A DNA stretch of 44,411 nucleotides from Eubacteriales bacterium (GTDB taxonomy: Bacteria; Bacillota; Clostridia; Oscillospirales; Oscillospiraceae): contig JAUNSH010000008.1 of the NCBI GenBank assembly GCA_030539285.1, positions 1 through 44,411 of the forward strand, read 5' to 3'. The position numbers and the translations under genes are program-made. Below the pieces are notes generated by a model. That model saw only the letters and a list, made by a program, of their open reading frames with translations. It searched no databases and was not told the origin of the DNA. Of the stretch, positions 34,466 through 44,411 are shown one piece after another (the stretch's first letter is position 1; each line of letters opens with the position of its first letter).

Positions 34466-34499
34466 TTTGGTTATTTGTAACAAAGTAAGGAGTACTCAT

Positions 34500-34859
34500 A
34501 TGGGAACTTTGTACGAGAACATTACAAGTTTGTGTAATGAGCGAGGCATCAAAGGCGGAAAGATGTGTACCGATATCGGTATCAGTAAGGGTCTGCTTAC
34601 GGATTTGAAGATGGGCAGGCGTACAGGTGTAAGTGCTGTAACGGCTCAGAAGATTGCTGATTATTTTGGCGTTTCTGTTGCGTATCTTCTTGGAAAAGAA
34701 ACAGAAAAAGCGCCCACCGATAGCGGTGAGCGCAAGGATGTACTGGACGATGTAGATATTGCGTTTTACGGAGAATACAAGGAACTGACCGAGGAAGACC
34801 GGGCCACGATCCGGGACATGGTATCTGTCATGCGAAAGAGAAGGGCTTCGGAAAAGTAA
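34500..34859 (+). CDS. phage repressor, XRE family (CI-like)
   Basis: The 119-aa protein has an N-terminal HTH: MGTLYENITSLCNERGIKGG, then CTDIGISKGLLTDLKMGRRT with QKIADYFGVSVAYLLGKETE. It is typical of short CI-like repressors (XRE) with a C-terminal helical tail (TEEDRATIRDMVSVMRKRRA) and no protease domain. The neighbouring ImmA/IrrE peptidase would therefore supply repressor removal. I choose the ATG at 34500, 8 nt after AAGGAG. It would bind the RTACNY operators just upstream and hold the lytic promoter shut. Confidence 0.8.
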   Translation: MGTLYENITSLCNERGIKGGKMCTDIGISKGLLTDLKMGRRTGVSAVTAQKIADYFGVSVAYLLGKETEKAPTDSGERKDVLDDVDIAFYGEYKELTEEDRATIRDMVSVMRKRRASEK

Positions 34860-34874
34860 ACAGGAGCTACGAAC

Positions 34875-35297
34875 GTGTTTGAATTATCCCATTTTTACGA
34901 CTACTGCAAGGGTCATAACATTCTGATCCTACCATTTGCCGGTATGCCGTCTGCCGGGGCCACCATTCGTGACGGGTCAGACTATGGCATTTTTCTGGAC
35001 TTCACGAAGATCATGACCACCCGCCAGCTGCGTGGTATCTGTGCCCACGAACTTGGCCATGTCTCCACAGGGGCACTGCACAAAGTCAGCAGCCCGTTCG
35101 AGACCGTGGAACGCAGTGAGCACCGGGCCAGCCGCTGGACAGCGGAGAATATCCTGACAGAAGCAGATTTCCGGGAAGCCTTTGCAGCCGGATACACAGA
35201 GCCATGGCAGCTTGCGGAATATTTCGATCTGCCTGAGCAGGATATTATGAAGGCGTATGCCTACTGGAGAGACTGCCGAGGGGTACGTTTTGTATAG
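34875..35297 (+). CDS. ImmA/IrrE family metallopeptidase
   Basis: The 140-aa protein carries the zinc site RGICAHELGHVSTGALHK (H-E-x-x-H) near residues 56-60, a third ligand region after it (VERSEHRASRWTAENILTEA) and the family's end (LAEYFDLPEQDIMKAYAYWR). In ICEBs1 and many phages ImmA cleaves the repressor to start induction. It follows the repressor gene by 15 bp with AGGAGCTACGAAC before its GTG start, so the two form a repressor/anti-repressor pair. Confidence 0.9.
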   Translation: MFELSHFYDYCKGHNILILPFAGMPSAGATIRDGSDYGIFLDFTKIMTTRQLRGICAHELGHVSTGALHKVSSPFETVERSEHRASRWTAENILTEADFREAFAAGYTEPWQLAEYFDLPEQDIMKAYAYWRDCRGVRFV

Positions 35298-35329
35298 AAT
35301 AATCCGAATGACAATTATGGAGAGATAAT

Positions 35330-36133
35330 ATGCTGGAAAAGATATGTTTGATTGTGAAGAAATTGCTTATTTTCTCTGCTGTTTATGTTGCTTCATTGTT
35401 TACGCTTGCCCTTATCCTCGGATTGGCAAACGTTATGGGGAAAAGTGACACTATTGACACAGTCGCCGTGTTATCGATGATGATACTACCCATCGTTGCA
35501 GGTGTTGTAGTGGTACGAAACAAATATCCAAAATCAAAGACCGACAAGCATGTCACGCCGCAAAATGTCCCTGCATCGTCAGATACAAATACATCTCCTC
35601 GCGTAAATCAGGCACTCAATGCACAATCTGCTGGAAGTGCGAAGGAACCGAAGAAAGCAGCATCCGTTTCTTCGATCGTACCAGTCGAAAAAACATACCG
35701 GGTCGCTGGAACAAGTTTCTACACGGAAAACATTATGACGCTTGCGTATGAAAACCCAGATTATGAAAAAACAAAGCAAGAAATCATTGACGACGGAATG
35801 ATTGATGAAAGGATCTGGAAATACGGGTTTTACACACCTTGCGCAGATCTGGTTCCAGAGCCTGACAATCCGCATGACAAAAATGCAATTCAGGTAATCG
35901 TCAGCGGACTTCTGGTTGGATATATTAAGGCTGGCTCCTGTGCGCACCTTTTGAAGGTGATTGACGGTGGCCGTATACGAGGCGTTGACTGCGAAATATA
36001 TGGCGGCCCTTTCAAAATTGTAACCGAGGAATACGGCAGCGAGAACGAGTACGAGGAAACATACACGCTTAAACAGGAGGACAGAAATTTTTCTGTTATC
36101 CTGCATGTATACGAAGAACCAGAAAAAAAGTAA
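35330..36133 (+). CDS. membrane protein with HIRAN-like domain
   Basis: The 267-aa protein has two N-terminal membrane segments (LLIFSAVYVASLFTLALILG; VAVLSMMILPIVAGVVVV), a 50-residue polar linker, then from about residue 120 a domain with YRVAGTSFYTENIMTLAYEN, and from about 165 GFYTPCADLVPEPDNPHDKN followed by AIQVIVSGLLVGYIKAGSCA. The L-V-x-E-P-x-N-P-x-D-x-N-A-I-x-V and V-G-Y-I pieces are the HIRAN fold, which in other proteins binds DNA 3' ends. Here it is anchored to the membrane and lies in the lysogeny operon, so it is expressed in the lysogen. Function unknown. Confidence 0.7.
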   Translation: MLEKICLIVKKLLIFSAVYVASLFTLALILGLANVMGKSDTIDTVAVLSMMILPIVAGVVVVRNKYPKSKTDKHVTPQNVPASSDTNTSPRVNQALNAQSAGSAKEPKKAASVSSIVPVEKTYRVAGTSFYTENIMTLAYENPDYEKTKQEIIDDGMIDERIWKYGFYTPCADLVPEPDNPHDKNAIQVIVSGLLVGYIKAGSCAHLLKVIDGGRIRGVDCEIYGGPFKIVTEEYGSENEYEETYTLKQEDRNFSVILHVYEEPEKK

Positions 36134-36154
36134 ATACGAAAAGAGGTGGACAAA

Positions 36155-36337
36155 ATGCTGTGGTTAGCCATCATTGTCACTGCAATCATTCTGTACTATT
36201 TCACCAAGATAGACGAGAAGCAGGACAGCAAGTGCCAATCTGCCGCAGAACGCAGACGCGGCGAAGAAATCCTCCGGGCCAGAGCCGAACGAGCCGCCGA
36301 GGAGCAGAACGCAGACAATCAGCAGAATAACGTATAA
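36155..36337 (+). CDS. small membrane protein (60 aa)
   Basis: One membrane segment (MLWLAIIVTAIILYYFTK) is followed by a highly charged helix (ERRRGEEILRARAERAAEEQ). AAGAGGTGG precedes the ATG at 36155; a GTG at 36146 is possible. It is the last complete gene of the prophage A lysogeny operon. Similar short anchor proteins are found beside HIRAN or repressor genes, but I know of no function. Confidence 0.5.
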   Translation: MLWLAIIVTAIILYYFTKIDEKQDSKCQSAAERRRGEEILRARAERAAEEQNADNQQNNV

Positions 36338-36342
36338 ACAAA

Positions 36343-36380
36343 GCAAAAACCGCCCCGGCGTTACCAGCACCGAAGCGGTT
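36343..36380 (-). terminator. intrinsic terminator (minus strand) before the integrase
   Basis: Read on the minus strand, the 13-bp arms (36368-36380 and 36348-36360) pair fully when G-U pairs are allowed, around a 7-nt loop, and end in TTTTTGC. Read on the plus strand three pairs fail. It would stop leftward transcription entering the lysogeny genes from the att/IS side while letting plus-strand transcription pass. A similar hairpin precedes integrase genes in related mobile elements. Confidence 0.65.
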
Positions 36381-36499
36381 GAAGCGATTGGAAATGTTAC
36401 CAGCACGTCCAATCAATACAGAACGCACCCACAAACGACTACAGGGGCAGTCTGCCTATTTATGATACCAGATTTGCCCCGGAAAGGCAAGGCAAAAAG
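36381..36499 (+). other. non-coding leader of the truncated integrase
   Basis: This 120-bp stretch carries no gene. It includes a second gttaccagcac copy (36398-36408, compare 36361-36370) and ends with gGAAAGGCaaggcaaaaag directly before the TTG of the integrase fragment, which may act as its ribosome binding region. Confidence 0.35.
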
Positions 36500-36526
36500 T
36501 TGAAAAAATCCAAGGACGGAAAAGTC
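36500..36526 (+). pseudogene. 5' fragment of a phage tyrosine integrase gene, cut by IS30
   Basis: A TTG start is followed by codons for KKSKDGK, after which the frame reaches a stop at 36533-36535 in IS sequence. Tyrosine integrases of clostridial elements commonly start M-K-K-S-K-D-G-[KL]-Y-R-A-K-V, behind the type of leader and hairpin seen here. The place, just after the repressor operon and before attR, is where an integrase belongs, and no other integrase occurs in the window. The remainder is not found on the far side of the IS. The fragment is very short, so this is a reasoned identification. Confidence 0.5.
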
Positions 36527-36635
36527 AAGCATTAAATGCGCACAAATTTCCCGTTTCTTTTTTGTCTAATTTTAACATGACAACATGGCCGCCGTCAATT
36601 ACCTTGGTCGGCAGCCTGCGCTTTCCTCTGTTCAT
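36525..36635 (-). CDS. possible small ORF inside the IS (36 aa)
   Basis: The frame reads MNRGKRRLPTKVIDGGHVVM and ends NLCAFNA. It is basic at the N-terminus and lies between the transposase stop and the left end of the IS, on the same strand. A weak purine-rich site (GGGAGAAGTGAGAAA) precedes the ATG. It could be a passenger of this IS or a chance frame; its last bases run to the IS boundary. Confidence 0.3.
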   Translation of the reverse strand: MNRGKRRLPTKVIDGGHVVMLKLDKKETGNLCAFNA

Positions 36636-37854
36636 TTTCTCACTTCTTCTCCCGATTTCTCTCCTTTTCGTATTCTTTATACGCCTGTATCTTCTTACGC
36701 AATAACTCCCAGCTCCCGCAGGCAGGCCCGGAACATGACCTCGCTGCTCATGTACCCCAGTATCTTCCGGGGGTAGTTGTTTATCCACCGCTCCGTGTCT
36801 GCGATCTCCGCTGCGCTCACCTTGGCAAAGTTGGTGCCCTTTGGGTGCTTTCTCCTAATCATAATATTGGCATTCTCATTGCTGCCCCGCTCCCAGGAGG
36901 AATAGGGGTGGCAGAAATACACCTTTGTCCGGGGGATGGTCTTGTTGATGGCGCTGCGCTCCAGCTCCTCCGCCGCCGAAAACTCCGACCCGTTATCTAC
37001 TGTAATGGACTTGAAAATCTTTCTGAATTTTGCTGCGCCGATCTTCCGCTCCAGCGCGTCGATTGCCCGTACAATAGTCTCTGCCTTGCGGTTCGGCACC
37101 AATATGATGATCTCCCGCCTCGTCTTGCGCTCTGTCAGCACCAGCAGCGCCTTTGTCGTGCTGTTCTTTCGACTGTAAACGGTGTCCATTTCCCAATGCC
37201 CGAACTCCTCTCGGTTCTCGACTTCCTCCGGCCTGCGCTCGATGCTCTCACCAGCGGACGCTCTGGCCTGGTCTTTCTTGGTCTTTACCTTTTTGTACCC
37301 CTGCTTTTTCTTGCCGTGTCTCGGTAAGTCCACCTGTGTAATGCGCAGGAACAGGCCCTTTTTGATGTAGCTGTAAATGGTCGCAACCGAAACGGAGGTT
37401 TTGAACTTCCGGCCCTCCATCAGTGCATAACCCAGCACGGCGGCGGGGCTACACTCTTTGGTAATGATCGTCTCCTCGATGTATGCTGCCAGCTCATGGT
37501 CATTCCCGATTTTCAGATCAGGGCCTTTCTCTCGCAGGTTCGCTTGATACCGCTCCTCCGCGATGTCCGGGCTGTATGCCGTCACCATTTCCCAGGTATC
37601 GCCGTCCAGCCTTTCATACTGCCCCCGCTTCAATTCCCGGTATATGGTGGAAATATGTACCCGCATCTTGTCTGCGATCTCCTGCGGTTTCAGTCCCCGG
37701 CGCAGCCACCTTTCAATCCGCAGCCTGTCGTTCTTGGTCAGGTGCTTAAAGGTTCGTTTCTTTGTTTGCACTGTAAAGCCTCCTTTCGGCTCACCCACGG
37801 CGGGCGGCGGTCGTCTCCAGCCCCTCCGCCTGTCTCACTTTGTCGCATTATTGC
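36529..37854 (-). mobile_element. IS30-family insertion sequence (about 1.33 kb)
   Basis: The element surrounds one IS30-type transposase gene. Candidate ends are imperfect inverted repeats: gcattaaatgcgcacaaa starting at 36529 and, on the other strand from 37854, gcaataatgcgacaaag, which agree except for two single-base gaps. The left end falls inside the integrase gene and the right end falls about 60 bp before the terminator of prophage B. No clear target duplication is visible, as expected if DNA next to the IS was deleted. The exact ends are uncertain. Confidence 0.55.
36695..37771 (-). CDS. IS30 family transposase
   Basis: The 358-aa protein has the N-terminal HTH (FKHLTKNDRLRIERWLRRGL; KPQEIADKMRVHISTIYREL), a second HTH-like part (TSVSVATIYSYIKKGLFLRI), and the DDE integrase core: GHWEMDTVYSRKNSTTKALL (first D), KSITVDNGSEFSAAEELERS (second D), and YSSWERGSNENANIMIRRKH (E), closing with RWINNYPRKILGY. 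All three catalytic residues are present, so it may be active. I choose the GTG at 37771, after AAAGGAGGCTTTACA, over an ATG at 37798. Confidence 0.93.
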   Translation of the reverse strand: MQTKKRTFKHLTKNDRLRIERWLRRGLKPQEIADKMRVHISTIYRELKRGQYERLDGDTWEMVTAYSPDIAEERYQANLREKGPDLKIGNDHELAAYIEETIITKECSPAAVLGYALMEGRKFKTSVSVATIYSYIKKGLFLRITQVDLPRHGKKKQGYKKVKTKKDQARASAGESIERRPEEVENREEFGHWEMDTVYSRKNSTTKALLVLTERKTRREIIILVPNRKAETIVRAIDALERKIGAAKFRKIFKSITVDNGSEFSAAEELERSAINKTIPRTKVYFCHPYSSWERGSNENANIMIRRKHPKGTNFAKVSAAEIADTERWINNYPRKILGYMSSEVMFRACLRELGVIA

Positions 37855-40578: not shown

Positions 40579-40761
40579 TCAGCCCGGCCACTCGTCGCCG
40601 CCGATGGCTCTGCGGTAAGCCTGGTCGGCCTCCGCGATTTCATCCTTGCCGGTTTCGGTGTCCCCCAGCTCCGCAAGGCGTGCCGCCAAAACCTTGATTG
40701 CCCGAGCCTGGATTTCGGTCACGCTCTCCAGGTCTGCGATGATCTGCAAATGACTGCTCAT
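40579..40761 (-). CDS. small acidic phage protein (60 aa)
   Basis: The protein reads MSSHLQIIADLESVTEIQAR, with AIKVLAARLAELGDTETGKD, a single long helix with a short polar end. Short helical proteins of this type often follow tail-fibre genes and may act as chaperones or as a link to the lysis genes. The ATG overlaps the upstream stop (ATGA), so translation is coupled. It is not similar to Avd proteins, which are about twice as long with a four-helix bundle. Confidence 0.5.
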   Translation of the reverse strand: MSSHLQIIADLESVTEIQARAIKVLAARLAELGDTETGKDEIAEADQAYRRAIGGDEWPG

Positions 40762-41405
40762 TCCGCAACCTCCGTCCAGCAGGCCACTCCAGGCTCCCAC
40801 ACATTCCCGTCCGCGTCGCTCGTCCAGTGCTTCCCGTTGTGGCTCACCTTGGCCCCGACGGCATAGGCATCGTGTGCCCCCGTCGGCTGGCTCCAGGCGG
40901 GCCACTCCTCCGCCGGGTCTGCGGCAATGGCCCACAGGCTGGCGGCATTGTTCGGCTCCCATCCCTCCTGCGAGGTGTGTGCCTGCACACAGCGGTATAG
41001 CTTGTCCCCGTAATTGCGATACTGGCCCACGGCGTAGCTCACCCCGTCTTTCCACTCGGCAAACATCTCCTTGTGTTCTCCGGCGGTCGTCTCGTCAATG
41101 CTGCCGTTTTCCGCCATGGTCACAAATGCGATCTCCACCGCCTCCCGCGTGCCGTTCAGCGTCTTGGTGCGGTCGATGTAACGGTAATGCTCCGTGATGG
41201 TGTAGAAGTCATACTTCACCCCGTCCTCACCCACAACGCCGTCATAGTGCCGCTCAATGCGGCATCGGTCGGTAATCGTGCTGTCGTCGTACTCCCGCAC
41301 GGTGGTGAAGTATTCTCCCTCCGCCAGCGCCGGGCCTCCGCCCACAATTTTCAGGTTTTCCCGCGTCACGCCGTCAATGGCAACGGTTCCGTACACATAT
41401 TCCAT
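40758..41405 (-). CDS. phage protein with two carbohydrate-binding (CBM5/12-like) modules
   Basis: The 215-aa protein has an N-terminal part resembling tail-fibre accessory domains (EYVYGTVAIDGVTRENLKIV; FVTMAENGSIDETTAGEHKE), then two chitin-binding-type modules near the C-terminus: VSYAVGQYRNYGDKLYRCVQ followed by WEPNNAASLW, and DAYAVGAKVSHNGKHWTSDA followed by WEPGVACW. Aromatic pairs (Y/W) form the sugar-contact face in such modules. It probably binds host surface glycans. The AAAGGAGCTGGCAAA site supports the ATG at 41405, which overlaps the reverse transcriptase gene by 40 bp. Confidence 0.7.
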   Translation of the reverse strand: MEYVYGTVAIDGVTRENLKIVGGGPALAEGEYFTTVREYDDSTITDRCRIERHYDGVVGEDGVKYDFYTITEHYRYIDRTKTLNGTREAVEIAFVTMAENGSIDETTAGEHKEMFAEWKDGVSYAVGQYRNYGDKLYRCVQAHTSQEGWEPNNAASLWAIAADPAEEWPAWSQPTGAHDAYAVGAKVSHNGKHWTSDADGNVWEPGVACWTEVAE

Positions 41406-42469
41406 TTTGCCAGCTCCTTTCTCGAATGCTCTCTTACCACGAGCTTTAATTTTCGTTGCAGCCCCTTTTCCACATACCGCTCAAAGAAGTGTACATGGTT
41501 GCAGTGCTTCATCTGGCCCAGCCTGGAAAGCAGCCCCTGCGCCAGCGCGGGCCTGATCTTGCGGTGCCGTGCCATGACCCGTCGGCACTCCGCCAGCGCC
41601 TTTTTCAGCCGCACCAGATTTCGCTTCCGCAGCACGGTAAAGCCGTGGCCGAACCGATAGCCCAGCGCCGCCACCGTCCGCTTGGCGGTGGGGTATAGCT
41701 GCCATTTTCCGTTCAGCTTTAGGCCCCGCTCTGCCAGCCATTCTTCCACCAGCGCCCGCAGCTTTCGCAGTTTCCGCTTGTTCCTGCCGAATATGGTAAA
41801 GTTGTCCATGTACCGCATATAGTGGTCGCACAGACCGCTTTTCCGTATCAGTTGGTCGAGTGGCTGCAATACCGTGTTGGCGAACCACTGGGAGAAATAT
41901 GCGCCAATCAGCACGCCGTACTTCATCAGCCGCTCGCACACCTCCAGCATCCGCCGGTCTTTGATAAGCTGCCGTAGCCTTGCCATTACCGTTTCCACGG
42001 TCAGGCTGTCGTAAAAGTGGTGGATGTCCAGCTCCTCCGCATACTTGGTGCCTTTCGGGTCAGTACGCATCCACCGCTTGATAGCTTTCATGCCATAGTG
42101 GATGCCCCTGTCTTTGATGCTCCCGCAGCAGAACTTGTCCATGCCCCGCATCAACACCGGCTCCAAAACCTGGACGACTGCGTGATGCACATATTGGTCG
42201 GGCCATAGCCTCGGCTCCGAGATGTCCCGGAACTTCCCGGCGCTCTTGTCCCACCGGGTCGCCAGGCGCGGGGCTGTGGCCTCATATCCGTTGTTGAAGA
42301 TGTCCCGCAGCTGCTTCACATATCCGTCGATGTCCGCCTCCACCCGCAGCACCGTCTTGTTCGCCTTGTGGTGTGGGTGCCATCGGTGCGAGGCGTTCAC
42401 GGCCAGGATTGCCCGCCGCAGGTTTTCTTCCGAGATCAGTTTTTCATAGAGGTGGTTTGCGCGTTTCAT
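41366..42469 (-). CDS. DGR reverse transcriptase
   Basis: The 367-aa protein copies the template repeat RNA into adenine-mutated cDNA. RT features are visible: finger region RLATRWDKSAGKFRDISEPR; catalytic motif A in YAEELDIHHFYDSLTVETVM (Asp in L-D-I); the DGR-specific motif in KYGVLIGAYFSQWFANTVLQ (I-G-x-x-x-S-Q in place of Q-G-x-x-x-S-P); and the catalytic box in CDHYMRYMDNFTIFGRNKRK, where YMDN replaces YxDD. The C-terminal thumb (ALAECRRVMARHRKIRPALA) is highly basic. I choose ATG 42469 (MKRANHLYEK); the open frame extends upstream to 42499. It lies 3' of the template repeat on the same strand. Confidence 0.92.
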   Translation of the reverse strand: MKRANHLYEKLISEENLRRAILAVNASHRWHPHHKANKTVLRVEADIDGYVKQLRDIFNNGYEATAPRLATRWDKSAGKFRDISEPRLWPDQYVHHAVVQVLEPVLMRGMDKFCCGSIKDRGIHYGMKAIKRWMRTDPKGTKYAEELDIHHFYDSLTVETVMARLRQLIKDRRMLEVCERLMKYGVLIGAYFSQWFANTVLQPLDQLIRKSGLCDHYMRYMDNFTIFGRNKRKLRKLRALVEEWLAERGLKLNGKWQLYPTAKRTVAALGYRFGHGFTVLRKRNLVRLKKALAECRRVMARHRKIRPALAQGLLSRLGQMKHCNHVHFFERYVEKGLQRKLKLVVREHSRKELAKWNMCTEPLPLTA

Positions 42470-42645
42470 CAGGATAAATGTCCCTCCTTTTAGTCTCACG
42501 GTCTTTCCACCGCTCCCGCAGGCGGCGGGAGTGTACTAAACCGTGTCCTGATGGCTTATCTGCACCAAGGGGTGCCGAAAAAGATCGCGCCCCGGCCTTG
42601 GGTCTTGCTGTGCCGGGTGTGGAGGTGGGTAGCCAGTCCGTAAAA

Positions 42646-42788
42646 GGACGCGGCAGCCGATGTTCGCGTTGGCGTTGGACGCGCCATTGTAGTTCACATA
42701 GAAAAGCCCGTGGTTCCCGTTCTGGTTATAGTTCCCGCCGAAGTGCAGGCACGGGTTGGAAGCGTTGAAGTTCCAGTTATCCGACGAG
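42646..42788 (-). repeat. DGR template repeat (TR), 143 bp
   Basis: This non-coding stretch repeats the end of the target gene (VR, 42978-43120) at an offset of 332 bp with 14 differences. Read in the VR frame it encodes NASNPCLHFGGNYNQNGNHG then LFYVNYNGASNANANIGCR, unusually rich in AAC codons, the codon type that adenine mutagenesis changes most usefully. Its transcript should serve as template for the reverse transcriptase 177 bp downstream. It has not been seen to encode a needed protein, though an open frame runs through it. Confidence 0.92.
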
Positions 42789-42883
42789 CCACGAAACAAG
42801 GCACCGACTGCATGCGCGATCTTCCCCTGTATTTTCACGCCGCCTTTGCGGCGGAAAACCCGTTAGGTTTTTGTTTAGCCCGG

Positions 42884-42940
42884 CCCCGCCCGCGCGAATG
42901 CGGGCGGGGAGTATGCAGGAGGGAGGGGGCTGCGGCCCCC
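42884..42940. other. GC-rich hairpins between VR and TR
   Basis: Two hairpins lie just downstream (minus-strand sense) of the target gene stop: gggggc/gccccc with a 4-nt loop (42925-42940) and a perfect 10-bp stem ccccgcccgc/gcgggcgggg with a 6-nt loop (42884-42909). There is no T-run, so they are not standard terminators. Known DGRs carry a GC-rich hairpin shortly after VR that helps target recognition; these are candidates, though further from VR (about 38 bp) than the few bases known in the Bordetella phage. Confidence 0.5.
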
Positions 42941-42963
42941 GTCCCCCTGCACCCCCTCCCCCA

Positions 42964-44411
42964 TCAGGGGAGTTTTTGGAGGCGGCAGCCGATGCTCGCG
43001 TAGGCGCTGGACGCGCCACTGTAGTACACATAGAAAAGCCCGAGGTACCCGTACTGGCTATAGTACCCGCCGAAGAACAGGCACGGGTAGGAAGCGTTGA
43101 AGTTCCAGTTATCCGACGAGTAGGTGCTTTCGCTGCCACCCGTTGCGGTGGGGTAAATGACCCATTCCAGGCCCGTTACCGTTGCCACCGCAAAGGCGCT
43201 GGGCCACCCGCTGGACGGCACACCCACGGCGGTTCCGCCGCTGGTGTCGCTGAAATTGCTTGGGTTTGTGATGATGTTAAGGCCGCTGCTGTTGTAATAG
43301 CAGCCGTCGCCCCAGTCGTACACATTGTCCCACAGACCTTCGATGTTCCGGTACTGCGTACCCAGACCGTAGGTGTCCCGGCTGCTCTGCGTGGTGCCCG
43401 TGTGATAGGGCATACTGTCCGTATAGCCCATATTGCCGGGGGCGCTGTTGTCTCCGCAGCCCTTGCCGATGGTCTTTTGCGTGTTCCAGTCCGCAAATTC
43501 CACCAGATAGAGCATCCACAGTGTCATGCGCATTTGGATGTCGCTCTGCCAGATCGTGCTTCCCAGGCTGTGGATGCCGCTTCGCGCCGCGCTCCGGGTG
43601 ATGTTTGCCTTGGGCTTTCCTCCCGTCTGGCTCTTATAGTTGCTGGTGTGGCAGTGGTATCGCCCGATGTACACGACATCCCGCTCGCCCTTTCCATCGC
43701 CACGGTTGGCGTGGGCCGGAGACACATAAAATCCCGTCGTTTCCTTGTCCGCGATCTGGAGCTTTAGGCTGTTGCCGTTCTTTGTCCACTTGTACCAGAA
43801 TTTGGGGATAGCCACCAGCACCCCCGCCTCGCTGTCAGTGCTTTTCACCATCCCGCTCCAGGGGGCCAGGTCATCAAAGGGACTTCCGTAGCTGGTCGCC
43901 CCCGCCACATAGGGCACAGGGTTGGCAAAGCCCGCCGCCTCGTCCGTGCGGCTCCAGACTGTGGTGCTGGTGCCGTCCCACTCCACGCCGTAGATGTGCG
44001 GCAGGCTCACCGTCACGGCGCAGGTCTTGGCGCTCGGCGCGGTATAGTTGGTGTCCGCCGCTGCCTGCACTGTCACCGTGGCGCTTCCGTCTGCCACCGC
44101 CGTCACCGTGATCTCGTTCCCGTTCACGCTCACCGTCACAATGCCGCTGGGGCTGGCGGTGGCGGTGATGGCTCCGGTGCCGCTCCGGGTCACGGTGATG
44201 ATCTTGCTTTTCGTGCTTGCGTTCAGGCTCATGGAAGTGGGGGAGAGGGCCAGGCTTCCCGCCGCCTTTTGAATGGCCCACGCCACATTTTTTGCGCTCA
44301 CGCTCCCGCCGTCCCACTGATAGTTGGCTTTCGGCGTGAATGTGGCCGCGTAGCTCCCGGCATCGGTTCCGCTGGTGGTGCCGCCCAGGGTCAGCTTTGC
44401 GCTGTCATAGT
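42964..44411 (-). CDS. DGR target: Ig-like / C-type-lectin-like phage tail (receptor-binding) protein, partial
   Basis: At least 482 residues are visible; the gene runs off the right edge without a start. The visible N-terminal side carries bacterial Ig-like repeats (KLTLGGTTSGTDAGSYAATF; LALSPTSMSLNASTKSKIIT; VNGNEITVTAVADGSATVTV). Then comes a globular part (YGVEWDGTSTTVWSRTDEAA; VLVAIPKFWYKWTKNGNSLK; QMRMTLWMLYLVEFADWNTQ), and the C-terminal lectin-like segment with the variable repeat (NFNASYPCLFFGGYYSQYGY), ending GCRLQKLP. Variable residues are placed as on a C-type lectin surface, as in other DGR targets. It is probably displayed at the tail tip to bind variable host receptors. Confidence 0.85.
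   Translation of the reverse strand, partial: YDSAKLTLGGTTSGTDAGSYAATFTPKANYQWDGGSVSAKNVAWAIQKAAGSLALSPTSMSLNASTKSKIITVTRSGTGAITATASPSGIVTVSVNGNEITVTAVADGSATVTVQAAADTNYTAPSAKTCAVTVSLPHIYGVEWDGTSTTVWSRTDEAAGFANPVPYVAGATSYGSPFDDLAPWSGMVKSTDSEAGVLVAIPKFWYKWTKNGNSLKLQIADKETTGFYVSPAHANRGDGKGERDVVYIGRYHCHTSNYKSQTGGKPKANITRSAARSGIHSLGSTIWQSDIQMRMTLWMLYLVEFADWNTQKTIGKGCGDNSAPGNMGYTDSMPYHTGTTQSSRDTYGLGTQYRNIEGLWDNVYDWGDGCYYNSSGLNIITNPSNFSDTSGGTAVGVPSSGWPSAFAVATVTGLEWVIYPTATGGSESTYSSDNWNFNASYPCLFFGGYYSQYGYLGLFYVYYSGASSAYASIGCRLQKLP
42978..43120 (-). repeat. DGR variable repeat (VR), 143 bp
   Basis: This is the 3' end of the target gene. Compared with the TR it has 12 substitutions at template adenines (8 A-to-T, 4 A-to-G in the coding sense), changing N to Y six times, N to S four times, and altering two H codons to F and L. 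One further change is C-to-T next to a mutated adenine (the H-to-F codon), and one is a G/C difference at the far 3' edge, where the initiation-of-mutagenic-homology element is expected. Everything else is identical. Confidence 0.95.

What the first reader, a model, noticed from the sequence alone, without database searches (positions are those of the whole stretch)
41366..44411. Complete diversity-generating retroelement in a prophage, acting on an Ig-like/lectin-like tail protein
Target gene with VR, TR and a DGR-type reverse transcriptase lie in order on one strand within 3 kb. The TR/VR pair, the I-G-x-x-x-S-Q motif of the enzyme and the AAC-rich template are directly visible. This is a known class of system; what is of interest is its particular target (bacterial Ig-like repeats plus a C-type-lectin-like end), its location in the tail/lysis module of a tandem prophage, and its odd parts listed below. 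The protein would let the phage change its receptor specificity.
Basis: partly seen in the sequence, partly recalled or inferred. Interest (0 to 1): 0.85.

Follow-up and report, generated by a model that had tools for sequence, protein, structure and literature searches.

The report
Phage tail-protein mutator with unusual enzyme
This is a real DNA-rewriting cassette that probably lets a gut-bacterial prophage vary the tip of its tail fibre; the cassette type is known, but its copying enzyme lacks a catalytic residue once reported as invariant in this family and belongs to a lineage whose mutations are of a narrower kind.

Summary
On the minus strand lie a target gene with VR (42978-43120), TR (42646-42788) and a DGR-type reverse transcriptase (41366-42469). 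TR and VR differ at 14 of 143 positions, 12 at TR adenines. Some near-identical relatives share TR and RT but differ in VR almost only there. This prophage itself was not seen varying.

Corrections: no recognisable Avd; an assembly gap cuts the target; the lectin fold is not shown (prediction tool off).

(2) The TR-RT spacer is Rfam's RT-18 RNA; a covarying helix brackets TR. (3) A-to-C is 57 of 1091 changed adenines in the clade, 283 of 1169 in 79 distant xxDD elements; synonymous Ser codons agree. My idea that Asn in the box causes this failed a held-out test.

Verdict: known kind, new variant.

The parts
42964..44411 (-). 3' part of the DGR target gene (481 aa visible; 5' end cut by the 100-N scaffold gap). 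Beyond the gap the same repeats and a tail-fibre N-terminus continue to about C97:46202; that both sides are one gene is inferred
   Evidence: phrog_5302 tail protein and phrog_37900; part beyond the gap phrog_37900 and phrog_7037 tail fiber
42967..43998 (-). C-terminal domain that carries VR, conserved in the clade's targets (43-71% identity to the window; window plus 49 of the 59 relatives listed); fold not shown
42978..43120 (-). variable repeat VR
42956..42972 (-). hairpin just after VR, over the target's stop codon; 57 of 66 clade loci have a perfect hairpin of 6 bp or more within 75 nt after VR, 11 of 66 when each is shuffled once
42914..42951 (-). second strong hairpin after VR (-31 kcal/mol)
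42814..42823 (-). 5' arm of the long-range helix that brackets TR (10 bp perfect; 6 of 2000 shuffles reach it)
   Evidence: covariation of this helix in relatives
42646..42788 (-). template repeat TR, 34 adenines, 13 Asn codons in the VR frame
42581..42590 (-). 3' arm of the TR-bracketing helix
42484..42574 (-). RT-18 RNA (RF03021), structured RNA between TR and RT
   Evidence: 73.6 bits against gathering 41.3; 13 of 13 clade loci tested also hit
41366..42469 (-). DGR-type reverse transcriptase, 367 aa, start ATG 42469-42467 (my choice of start within the open frame)
41801..41806 (-). Asp-Asn of the YMDN box: Asn where BPP-1 RT has the second Asp of YMDD
40758..41405 (-). protein after RT with a carbohydrate-binding module 5/12; overlaps the RT 3' end by 40 nt; no match to BPP-1 Avd

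Best explanation
It is a diversity-generating retroelement of the myovirus-type prophage that fills the right part of contig C97. The TR transcript, held as a loop by a long-range helix and followed by the RT-18 RNA, is copied by the adjacent RT with errors almost only at adenines; the cDNA replaces VR at the 3' end of the tail-fibre-like gene, probably using the VR end and the hairpins behind it as landing site. It does so without a cassette-encoded Avd and with a YMDN active site. Shown: TR/VR pattern, RT family, RNA conservation, VR variation among close relatives of relatives, absence of recognisable Avd. Inferred: transcription, cDNA synthesis and homing in this prophage, and that the varied residues bind a host surface receptor.
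For: Adenine-only pattern. In 66 of 66 clade loci with a detected pair the order is VR, TR, RT, with TR 117-319 nt before RT. Same TR and RT with different VR in contigs whose names bear different IMG sample numbers: L096/L097 14 of 15 and L104/L106 20 of 21 VR differences at TR adenines, with 0 TR differences. RT best matched by phrog_1423 and by solved structure 8ub7. RNA structure: 97.1% of 871 cells paired, 23 of 25 pairs with changes on both sides, 0 of 500 shuffles reach the covariation score. Gene order resembles BPP-1 (endolysin, RT, TR, target) and Faecalibacterium phage FP_Epona (baseplate, target, RT, lysis genes), apart from Avd in BPP-1. Paper: Avd homologs were found in only 2 of the Faecalibacterium type phages, not in Epona, whose target is of the superfamily that includes Mtd (PMC5883640, passages).
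Against: No strain of this prophage with another VR was found, so activity here is by analogy. YMDN departs from the 2012 survey, in which both Asp were conserved in all of 155 elements (PMC3521204, passages). Two VR mismatches are not at adenines. Of 17 near-identical locus pairs only 5 showed VR differences; 5 were identical and 7 not measurable. The target gene is interrupted by a gap in the assembly.
Confidence: 0.9

Rival explanations
1. A decayed DGR: the RT lost activity through the Asp-to-Asn change, and the VR is a frozen relic.
For: YMDN departs from YxDD; D211N in yeast Ty1 RT lowers kpol 223-fold and abolishes transposition (PMC2148107, abstract and passages).
Against: All 78 leaves of the clade have xxDN. 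YMDN relatives with 100% and 99.8% identical RTs and identical TRs differ in VR at 15 and 21 places, 14 and 20 of them at TR adenines. TR/VR here has only 2 non-adenine mismatches, and the RT frame is open.
Confidence: 0.05
2. The low A>C share in the clade is selection on the tail-fibre residues, not a property of the enzyme.
For: VRs are survivors of selection; the clade's targets share one domain. The 2012 survey found C the rarest substitution in general and argued against a strong enzymatic bias (PMC3521204, passages). Sister xxDD elements show no TCC either (AGC:TCC 30:0, P 1 against the clade), so the codon test separates the clade only from the more distant set.
Against: Among in-frame AAC codons that became Ser, AGC:TCC is 164:2 in the clade and 56:12 in the more distant xxDD elements (Fisher P 9e-6). 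C at the second A is 4 of 725 against 63 of 450 codons (sums over), although it would give four different residues.
Confidence: 0.3
3. Avd is supplied in trans by an unrelated host four-helix protein (PF05635), so the system is Avd-dependent after all.
For: One PF05635 gene lies in the own genome at C46, and PF05635 hits occur in 4 of the 7 cellular genomes searched.
Against: G363, G406 and G711 (97-99% complete) carry clade DGRs and have neither PF22296 nor PF05635 hits. The C46 gene stands beside a tRNA and host genes, not beside a DGR. A protein too diverged for these models is not excluded.
Confidence: 0.1

Closest known systems
DGR of Bordetella phage BPP-1 (brt, TR, avd, mtd)
   Same: Order endolysin, RT, TR, target on one strand; RT homologous over 214 residues of the BPP-1-type chain; adenine-biased VR changes.
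   Different: No recognisable Avd gene; YMDN instead of YMDD; A>C changes rare, whereas BPP-1 RT misincorporates G often at adenines followed by C (PMC12875486, passages); target domain not detectably related to Mtd.
Avd-less DGRs of Faecalibacterium phages such as FP_Epona
   Same: Baseplate genes, target, TR, RT, then lysis genes on one strand; no Avd homolog reported for Epona; target weakly related.
   Different: RT only 31% identical with YMDD; its TR-RT spacer is RT-4 RNA, not RT-18.
Gut phage contig MT838586.1 (L020)
   Same: RT 51% and target domain 69% identical, YMDN, TR/VR pair, RT-18 RNA.
   Different: A 5-kb unannotated fragment; only 5 mismatches between TR and VR.
Rfam RT-18 RNA (RF03021)
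   Same: Window spacer matches over the whole model, above gathering score.
   Different: The Rfam match covers 42484-42574 only; both arms of the TR-bracketing helix lie outside it. How its authors interpreted it I could not read (paper not held).

Membership tests
Diversity-generating retroelement | TR/VR pair whose differences face TR adenines | tested here: met
   12 of 14
Diversity-generating retroelement | VR at the 3' end of a coding gene | tested here: met
   11 nt lie between VR and the stop codon
Diversity-generating retroelement | RT of the DGR kind with (I/V/L)GxxxSQ | tested here: met
   IGAYFSQ; phrog_1423 and 8ub7 best. By scores only: no tree with group II or retron RTs was made.
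Diversity-generating retroelement | One-way transfer TR to VR: TR constant, VR varies | tested here: inconclusive
   Met in some pairs of relatives; no second copy of this prophage to test
Typical DGR RT as in the 2012 survey | Both Asp of YxDD conserved (155 of 155 there) | tested here: not met
   YMDN; descriptive in that survey, not a criterion of the family
BPP-1-type, Avd-dependent DGR | Avd gene in the cassette | tested here: not met
   bAvd PF22296: BPP-1 control hit, 0 of 21 other genomes or records; BPP-1 Avd phmmer: 0 of 78 clade loci, 1 of 213 in all, BPP-1 itself
C-type lectin fold DGR target | CLec fold with variable residues on one face | tested here: inconclusive
   No Pfam match for the window or PDB sequence match for the profile; weak hhalign to Epona target, none to Mtd; structure prediction switched off
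Rfam RT-18 RNA | Covariance-model score above gathering | tested here: met
   73.6 against 41.3 bits

The most novel reading that the evidence does not exclude
A lineage of DGRs works without Avd, with an RT whose second metal-binding aspartate is asparagine, and with a polymerase-level error spectrum almost free of A>C changes, so that AAC codons sample mainly Tyr, Ser, Gly and Asp. DGR error spectra would then be an evolved, lineage-specific trait and not a fixed property of the mechanism.
Probability: 0.55. Interest if true: 0.65.

Novelty: new variant of a known kind. Interest (0 to 1): 0.45.

Why it matters
DGRs are a main known targeted hypermutation system of phages and bacteria, and it is open how their RTs err at adenines. 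A natural clade with an altered catalytic box, no recognisable Avd and a different error spectrum gives material to separate what is essential (the second Asp apparently is not) from what tunes the errors. It also ties Rfam families named only RT-4, RT-17 and RT-18 to DGR loci.

Tried and rejected
Asn in the box as the cause of low A>C: formed, where phylogenetic regression gave P 1e-5 for Asn at either place, but 0.03 for xxDN alone and 0.10 for NxDD alone (post hoc, same data). On 23 held-out elements (RT under 95% identical to the first set, new VR; from 113 new loci, 111 with RT, 77 with a pair) NMDD held (2 of 43 A>C, 3 elements), but 7 YMDN elements, 6 of them fetched with the L031-type query, had 26 of 95, YADN 4 of 14 and LVDN 3 of 13; 10 other xxDD elements had 32 of 176, and 1 without a readable box 4 of 16. 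xxDN as a general cause is therefore rejected. Asn at the first position rests on few elements. The held-out set holds no new element of the window's clade, so the clade's own low share has no independent replicate.

A TR-bracketing helix special to this clade: rejected; helices reached by 5 or fewer of 100 shuffles occur in 28 of 66 clade loci and 33 of 78 distant xxDD loci.

The first grouping by HMM score (A>C 65 of 1110 against 48 of 241) was replaced by the tree-based one. In one search, 12 of 78 clade leaves and 24 of 103 distant xxDD leaves were dropped for want of a detected TR/VR pair; the pair finder demands at least 70% of mismatches at A, so it cannot show that a lineage lacks the bias. 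In alignment A7 the window row is misaligned in the bracketing helix; its helix was found separately. A7 holds 35 of the 55 loci listed; A6 holds the window and 46 of the 72 listed. The clade was fetched partly with a peptide pattern containing MDN, so the share of xxDN in nature is not estimated; the 6 clade relatives found through genome searches without such a pattern (L003, L026, L027, L028, L121, L122) are xxDN as well.

The own-genome search for bAvd alone had no ringing control, so searches were added. Literature: YMDN with reverse transcriptase as whole words, 0 papers, and 0 uses in the 30 listed of 41 papers. Two key papers, the 2017 structured-RNA paper and the 2018 DGR survey, are not held, so I do not claim that YMDN, or RT-18 as a DGR RNA, is unpublished. 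An earlier count said that 12 of 13 clade loci hit RT-18; the call says 13 of 13.
Full report
What is there. The window is bases 1-44411 of a 75,514-base contig of a draft genome (2.78 Mb, 98 contigs, 84% complete). Two prophages of different build lie side by side: on the left one with portal, terminase, major head protein and tape measure, and on the right, continuing beyond the window, a myovirus-type prophage with terminase, portal, tail sheath, tape measure and baseplate wedge genes, then the target, the DGR, endolysin and holin. The window ends at a 100-N scaffold gap inside the target gene, among near-identical Ig-like repeat units; beyond the gap lie more such repeats and a tail-fibre N-terminus. 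That the two sides are one gene is inferred from the shared repeats.

TR and VR. The 143-nt repeats differ at 14 places, 12 facing a TR adenine (8 A>T, 4 A>G); 13 codons change. TR has a single VR in the genome held. Two hairpins follow VR; a perfect hairpin of at least 6 bp within 75 nt after VR is found in 57 of 66 clade loci, against 11 of 66 after one shuffle each. The G>C mismatch lies in the last bases of the repeat, where VR reads CTCC in 9 of 9 loci printed and TR in 1 of 9, as expected for a fixed difference between target end and template end (the comparison with BPP-1 IMH/IMH* is recalled).

Relatives. One scan of reference genomes gave a single locus, 58% identical; a scan of viral contigs with the window RT alone gave none. 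Searches of 136 genus, 300 family, 394 order and 391 class genomes gave 3, 12, 8 and 4 genomes with a match at their thresholds, the own genome counted each time. A profile search of viral contigs gave 136 relatives, 80 kept; two further searches gave 80 rows each as controls, from 552 and 592 relatives. Of 267 loci, 266 had an RT, 211 a TR/VR pair, and 213 non-redundant RTs entered the tree, rooted on BPP-1.

Is the lineage active? Among 17 locus pairs with RTs over 90% identical (loci), 5 had VR differences. L096/L097 (RT 100%, TR 0 of 142 differences, 300 nt upstream 100% identical) differ at 15 VR positions, 14 at TR adenines; L104/L106 at 21, 20 of them; L046 against L047 and against L048 (whose repeats are identical to each other) at 23, 22 of them; L117/L118 at 28, 21 of them, with 9 TR differences. 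Five pairs were identical, 6 could not be measured, 1 was unreliable. The differing contigs bear different IMG sample numbers. So close kin with this RT type rewrite VR in nature; this prophage itself was not observed doing so.

The enzyme. The window RT has YMDN where BPP-1 RT has YMDD. In the tree the window sits in a clade of 78 leaves, all xxDN, local support 0.94. In an alignment of the window and 46 relatives D221 and N222 are invariant. Part of the clade was fetched with a pattern containing MDN, but the 6 relatives found without it are xxDN too. Eleven xxDN leaves lie in the sister group and 4 in a distant place of the tree, the last enlarged in the held-out set; those with a pair show the adenine pattern, which the pair finder itself requires. 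The 2012 survey reported both Asp conserved in all 155 DGR RTs (PMC3521204, passages). In Ty1 the same change leaves weak polymerase activity with a preference for Mn2+ (PMC2148107, abstract and passages). A review says that DGR-RT errors go with low catalytic efficiency (PMC8867640, passages); that Asn might suit such an enzyme is my inference.

Avd. bAvd (PF22296) is found in the BPP-1 control and in 0 of 21 other genomes and records, among them 6 genomes at least 96% complete that carry clade DGRs; 14 of the 21 are virus records that may be fragments. BPP-1 Avd finds nothing in 78 clade loci, nor in any other of the 213 loci but BPP-1, so it is a blunt probe. The gap between VR and TR is 266 nt or less in 60 of 66 loci and exceeds 384 nt in 2 (407, 598), and that between TR and RT is 117-319 nt, against 128 codons for Avd. 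The PF05635 protein at C46 stands beside a tRNA and host genes, and three near-complete genomes with clade DGRs have no PF05635 hit. DGRs without detected Avd are in print (PMC5883640, passages).

The RNA. The spacer between TR and RT is RT-18 RNA (RF03021, 73.6 bits, gathering 41.3); 13 of 13 clade loci tested have it. Of 18 loci with DGR-type RTs outside the clade (one, L030, without a detected repeat), 11 have RT-18, 2 RT-4, 2 RT-17 and 3 none. In 35 clade loci RNAalifold finds, besides stems in the spacer, a long-range helix joining the sequence just before TR to the sequence after it. On a 25-pair structure 97.1% of cells pair, 23 pairs change on both sides, and the covariation score is 0.680 against 0.218 shuffled (0 of 500 reach it) and at most 0.155 when slid; on the number of further pair types 5 of 500 shuffles reach the observed value; the bracketing helix pairs in 96.4% of cells, all 8 pairs with a change on both sides, one of them in a single sequence. 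The structure was derived from this alignment, which favours it on cells paired. In the window the helix is 10 bp, AAGATCGCGC with GCGCGATCTT (6 of 2000 shuffles). Such helices are as frequent in distant DGRs, so this is probably a general feature.

The error spectrum. In the 66 clade elements with a pair, A>C makes up 57 of 1091 changed adenines; in 79 xxDD elements outside the wider 106-leaf group 283 of 1169; per-element Mann-Whitney P 6e-18 (65 against 79 elements with 6 or more changes, treated as independent). At the second A of AAC it is 6 of 331 against 65 of 221. C is the rarest substitution in the 2012 survey too, which saw no strong enzymatic bias (PMC3521204, passages); here the size of the difference is the point. 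BPP-1 RT shows the opposite tendency at this place: G misincorporation, i.e. A>C, is raised when C follows (PMC12875486, passages). Selection on residues is unlikely to be the whole cause: Ser by AGC or TCC is 164:2 against 56:12. In the sister group xxDN has 9 of 113, NxDD 12 of 154 and YMDD 13 of 50, which suggested that Asn in the box matters; 4 distant YMDN elements had 15 of 52 already then. Held-out data confirmed low A>C for NMDD (2 of 43) but not for YMDN (26 of 95); other xxDD had 32 of 176. What sets the spectrum is thus open; that it differs by lineage is the better supported part, without an independent replicate of the clade itself.

The target. The domain carrying VR is conserved across the clade (window and 49 relatives) and has no Pfam match for the window sequence and no solved-structure match by sequence profile. 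It is weakly related to the Epona target by profile, not detectably to Mtd. The 2021 survey described phage tail fibres with Ig-like domains next to an uncharacterised, non-Ig VR domain and thought such uncharacterised domains probably variants of the lectin fold (PMC8144416, passages), which fits this protein.

Verdict. A genuine DGR, a new variant of a known kind. The finding as given is ordinary for gut prophages; the RT box, the missing Avd and the lineage-specific spectrum make it worth a specialist's look.

Noticed in passing
L036 4412-4511 (contig C97 44412-44511): A 100-N scaffold gap lies inside the target gene among near-identical Ig-like repeat units; repeat number unknown.
   Followed up: partly
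clade loci, in-frame AAC codons of TR: AAC to TGC (Cys) occurs 1 time in 725 codons, although T at the first and G at the second A are both common (about 72 expected if independent, my arithmetic); rare in distant xxDD DGRs too (4 of 450). Counter-selection of Cys or coupling of neighbouring errors.
   Followed up: no
L031, L033, L277, L281 and held-out L342, L346, L349-L351, L354: A second, unrelated group of YMDN reverse transcriptases with TR/VR pairs and an ordinary A>C share.
   Followed up: partly
L022, L208 (RT-4) and L025, L035 (RT-17): Other Rfam RT-n RNAs also lie in DGR loci; in L022 and L025 between TR and RT.
   Followed up: partly
L032 (G220): A relative RT is broken into pieces in different frames, with one TAG inside a matched stretch, and no TR/VR pair was found: apparently a dead copy or an assembly fault.
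   Followed up: no
window 40758-41405: Protein directly after the RT with a carbohydrate-binding module 5/12, perhaps a further fibre or accessory part.
   Followed up: no
window 34467-37798: Between the two prophages: Cro/C1-type regulator, M78-type peptidase and HIRAN-domain protein on the plus strand, then a phage-type transposase with an rve domain on the minus strand.
   Followed up: no
G000:C46 20238-20531 (L039): A PF05635 four-helix gene just after a tRNA gene (my reading of the sequence), apparently unrelated to the DGR.
   Followed up: partly
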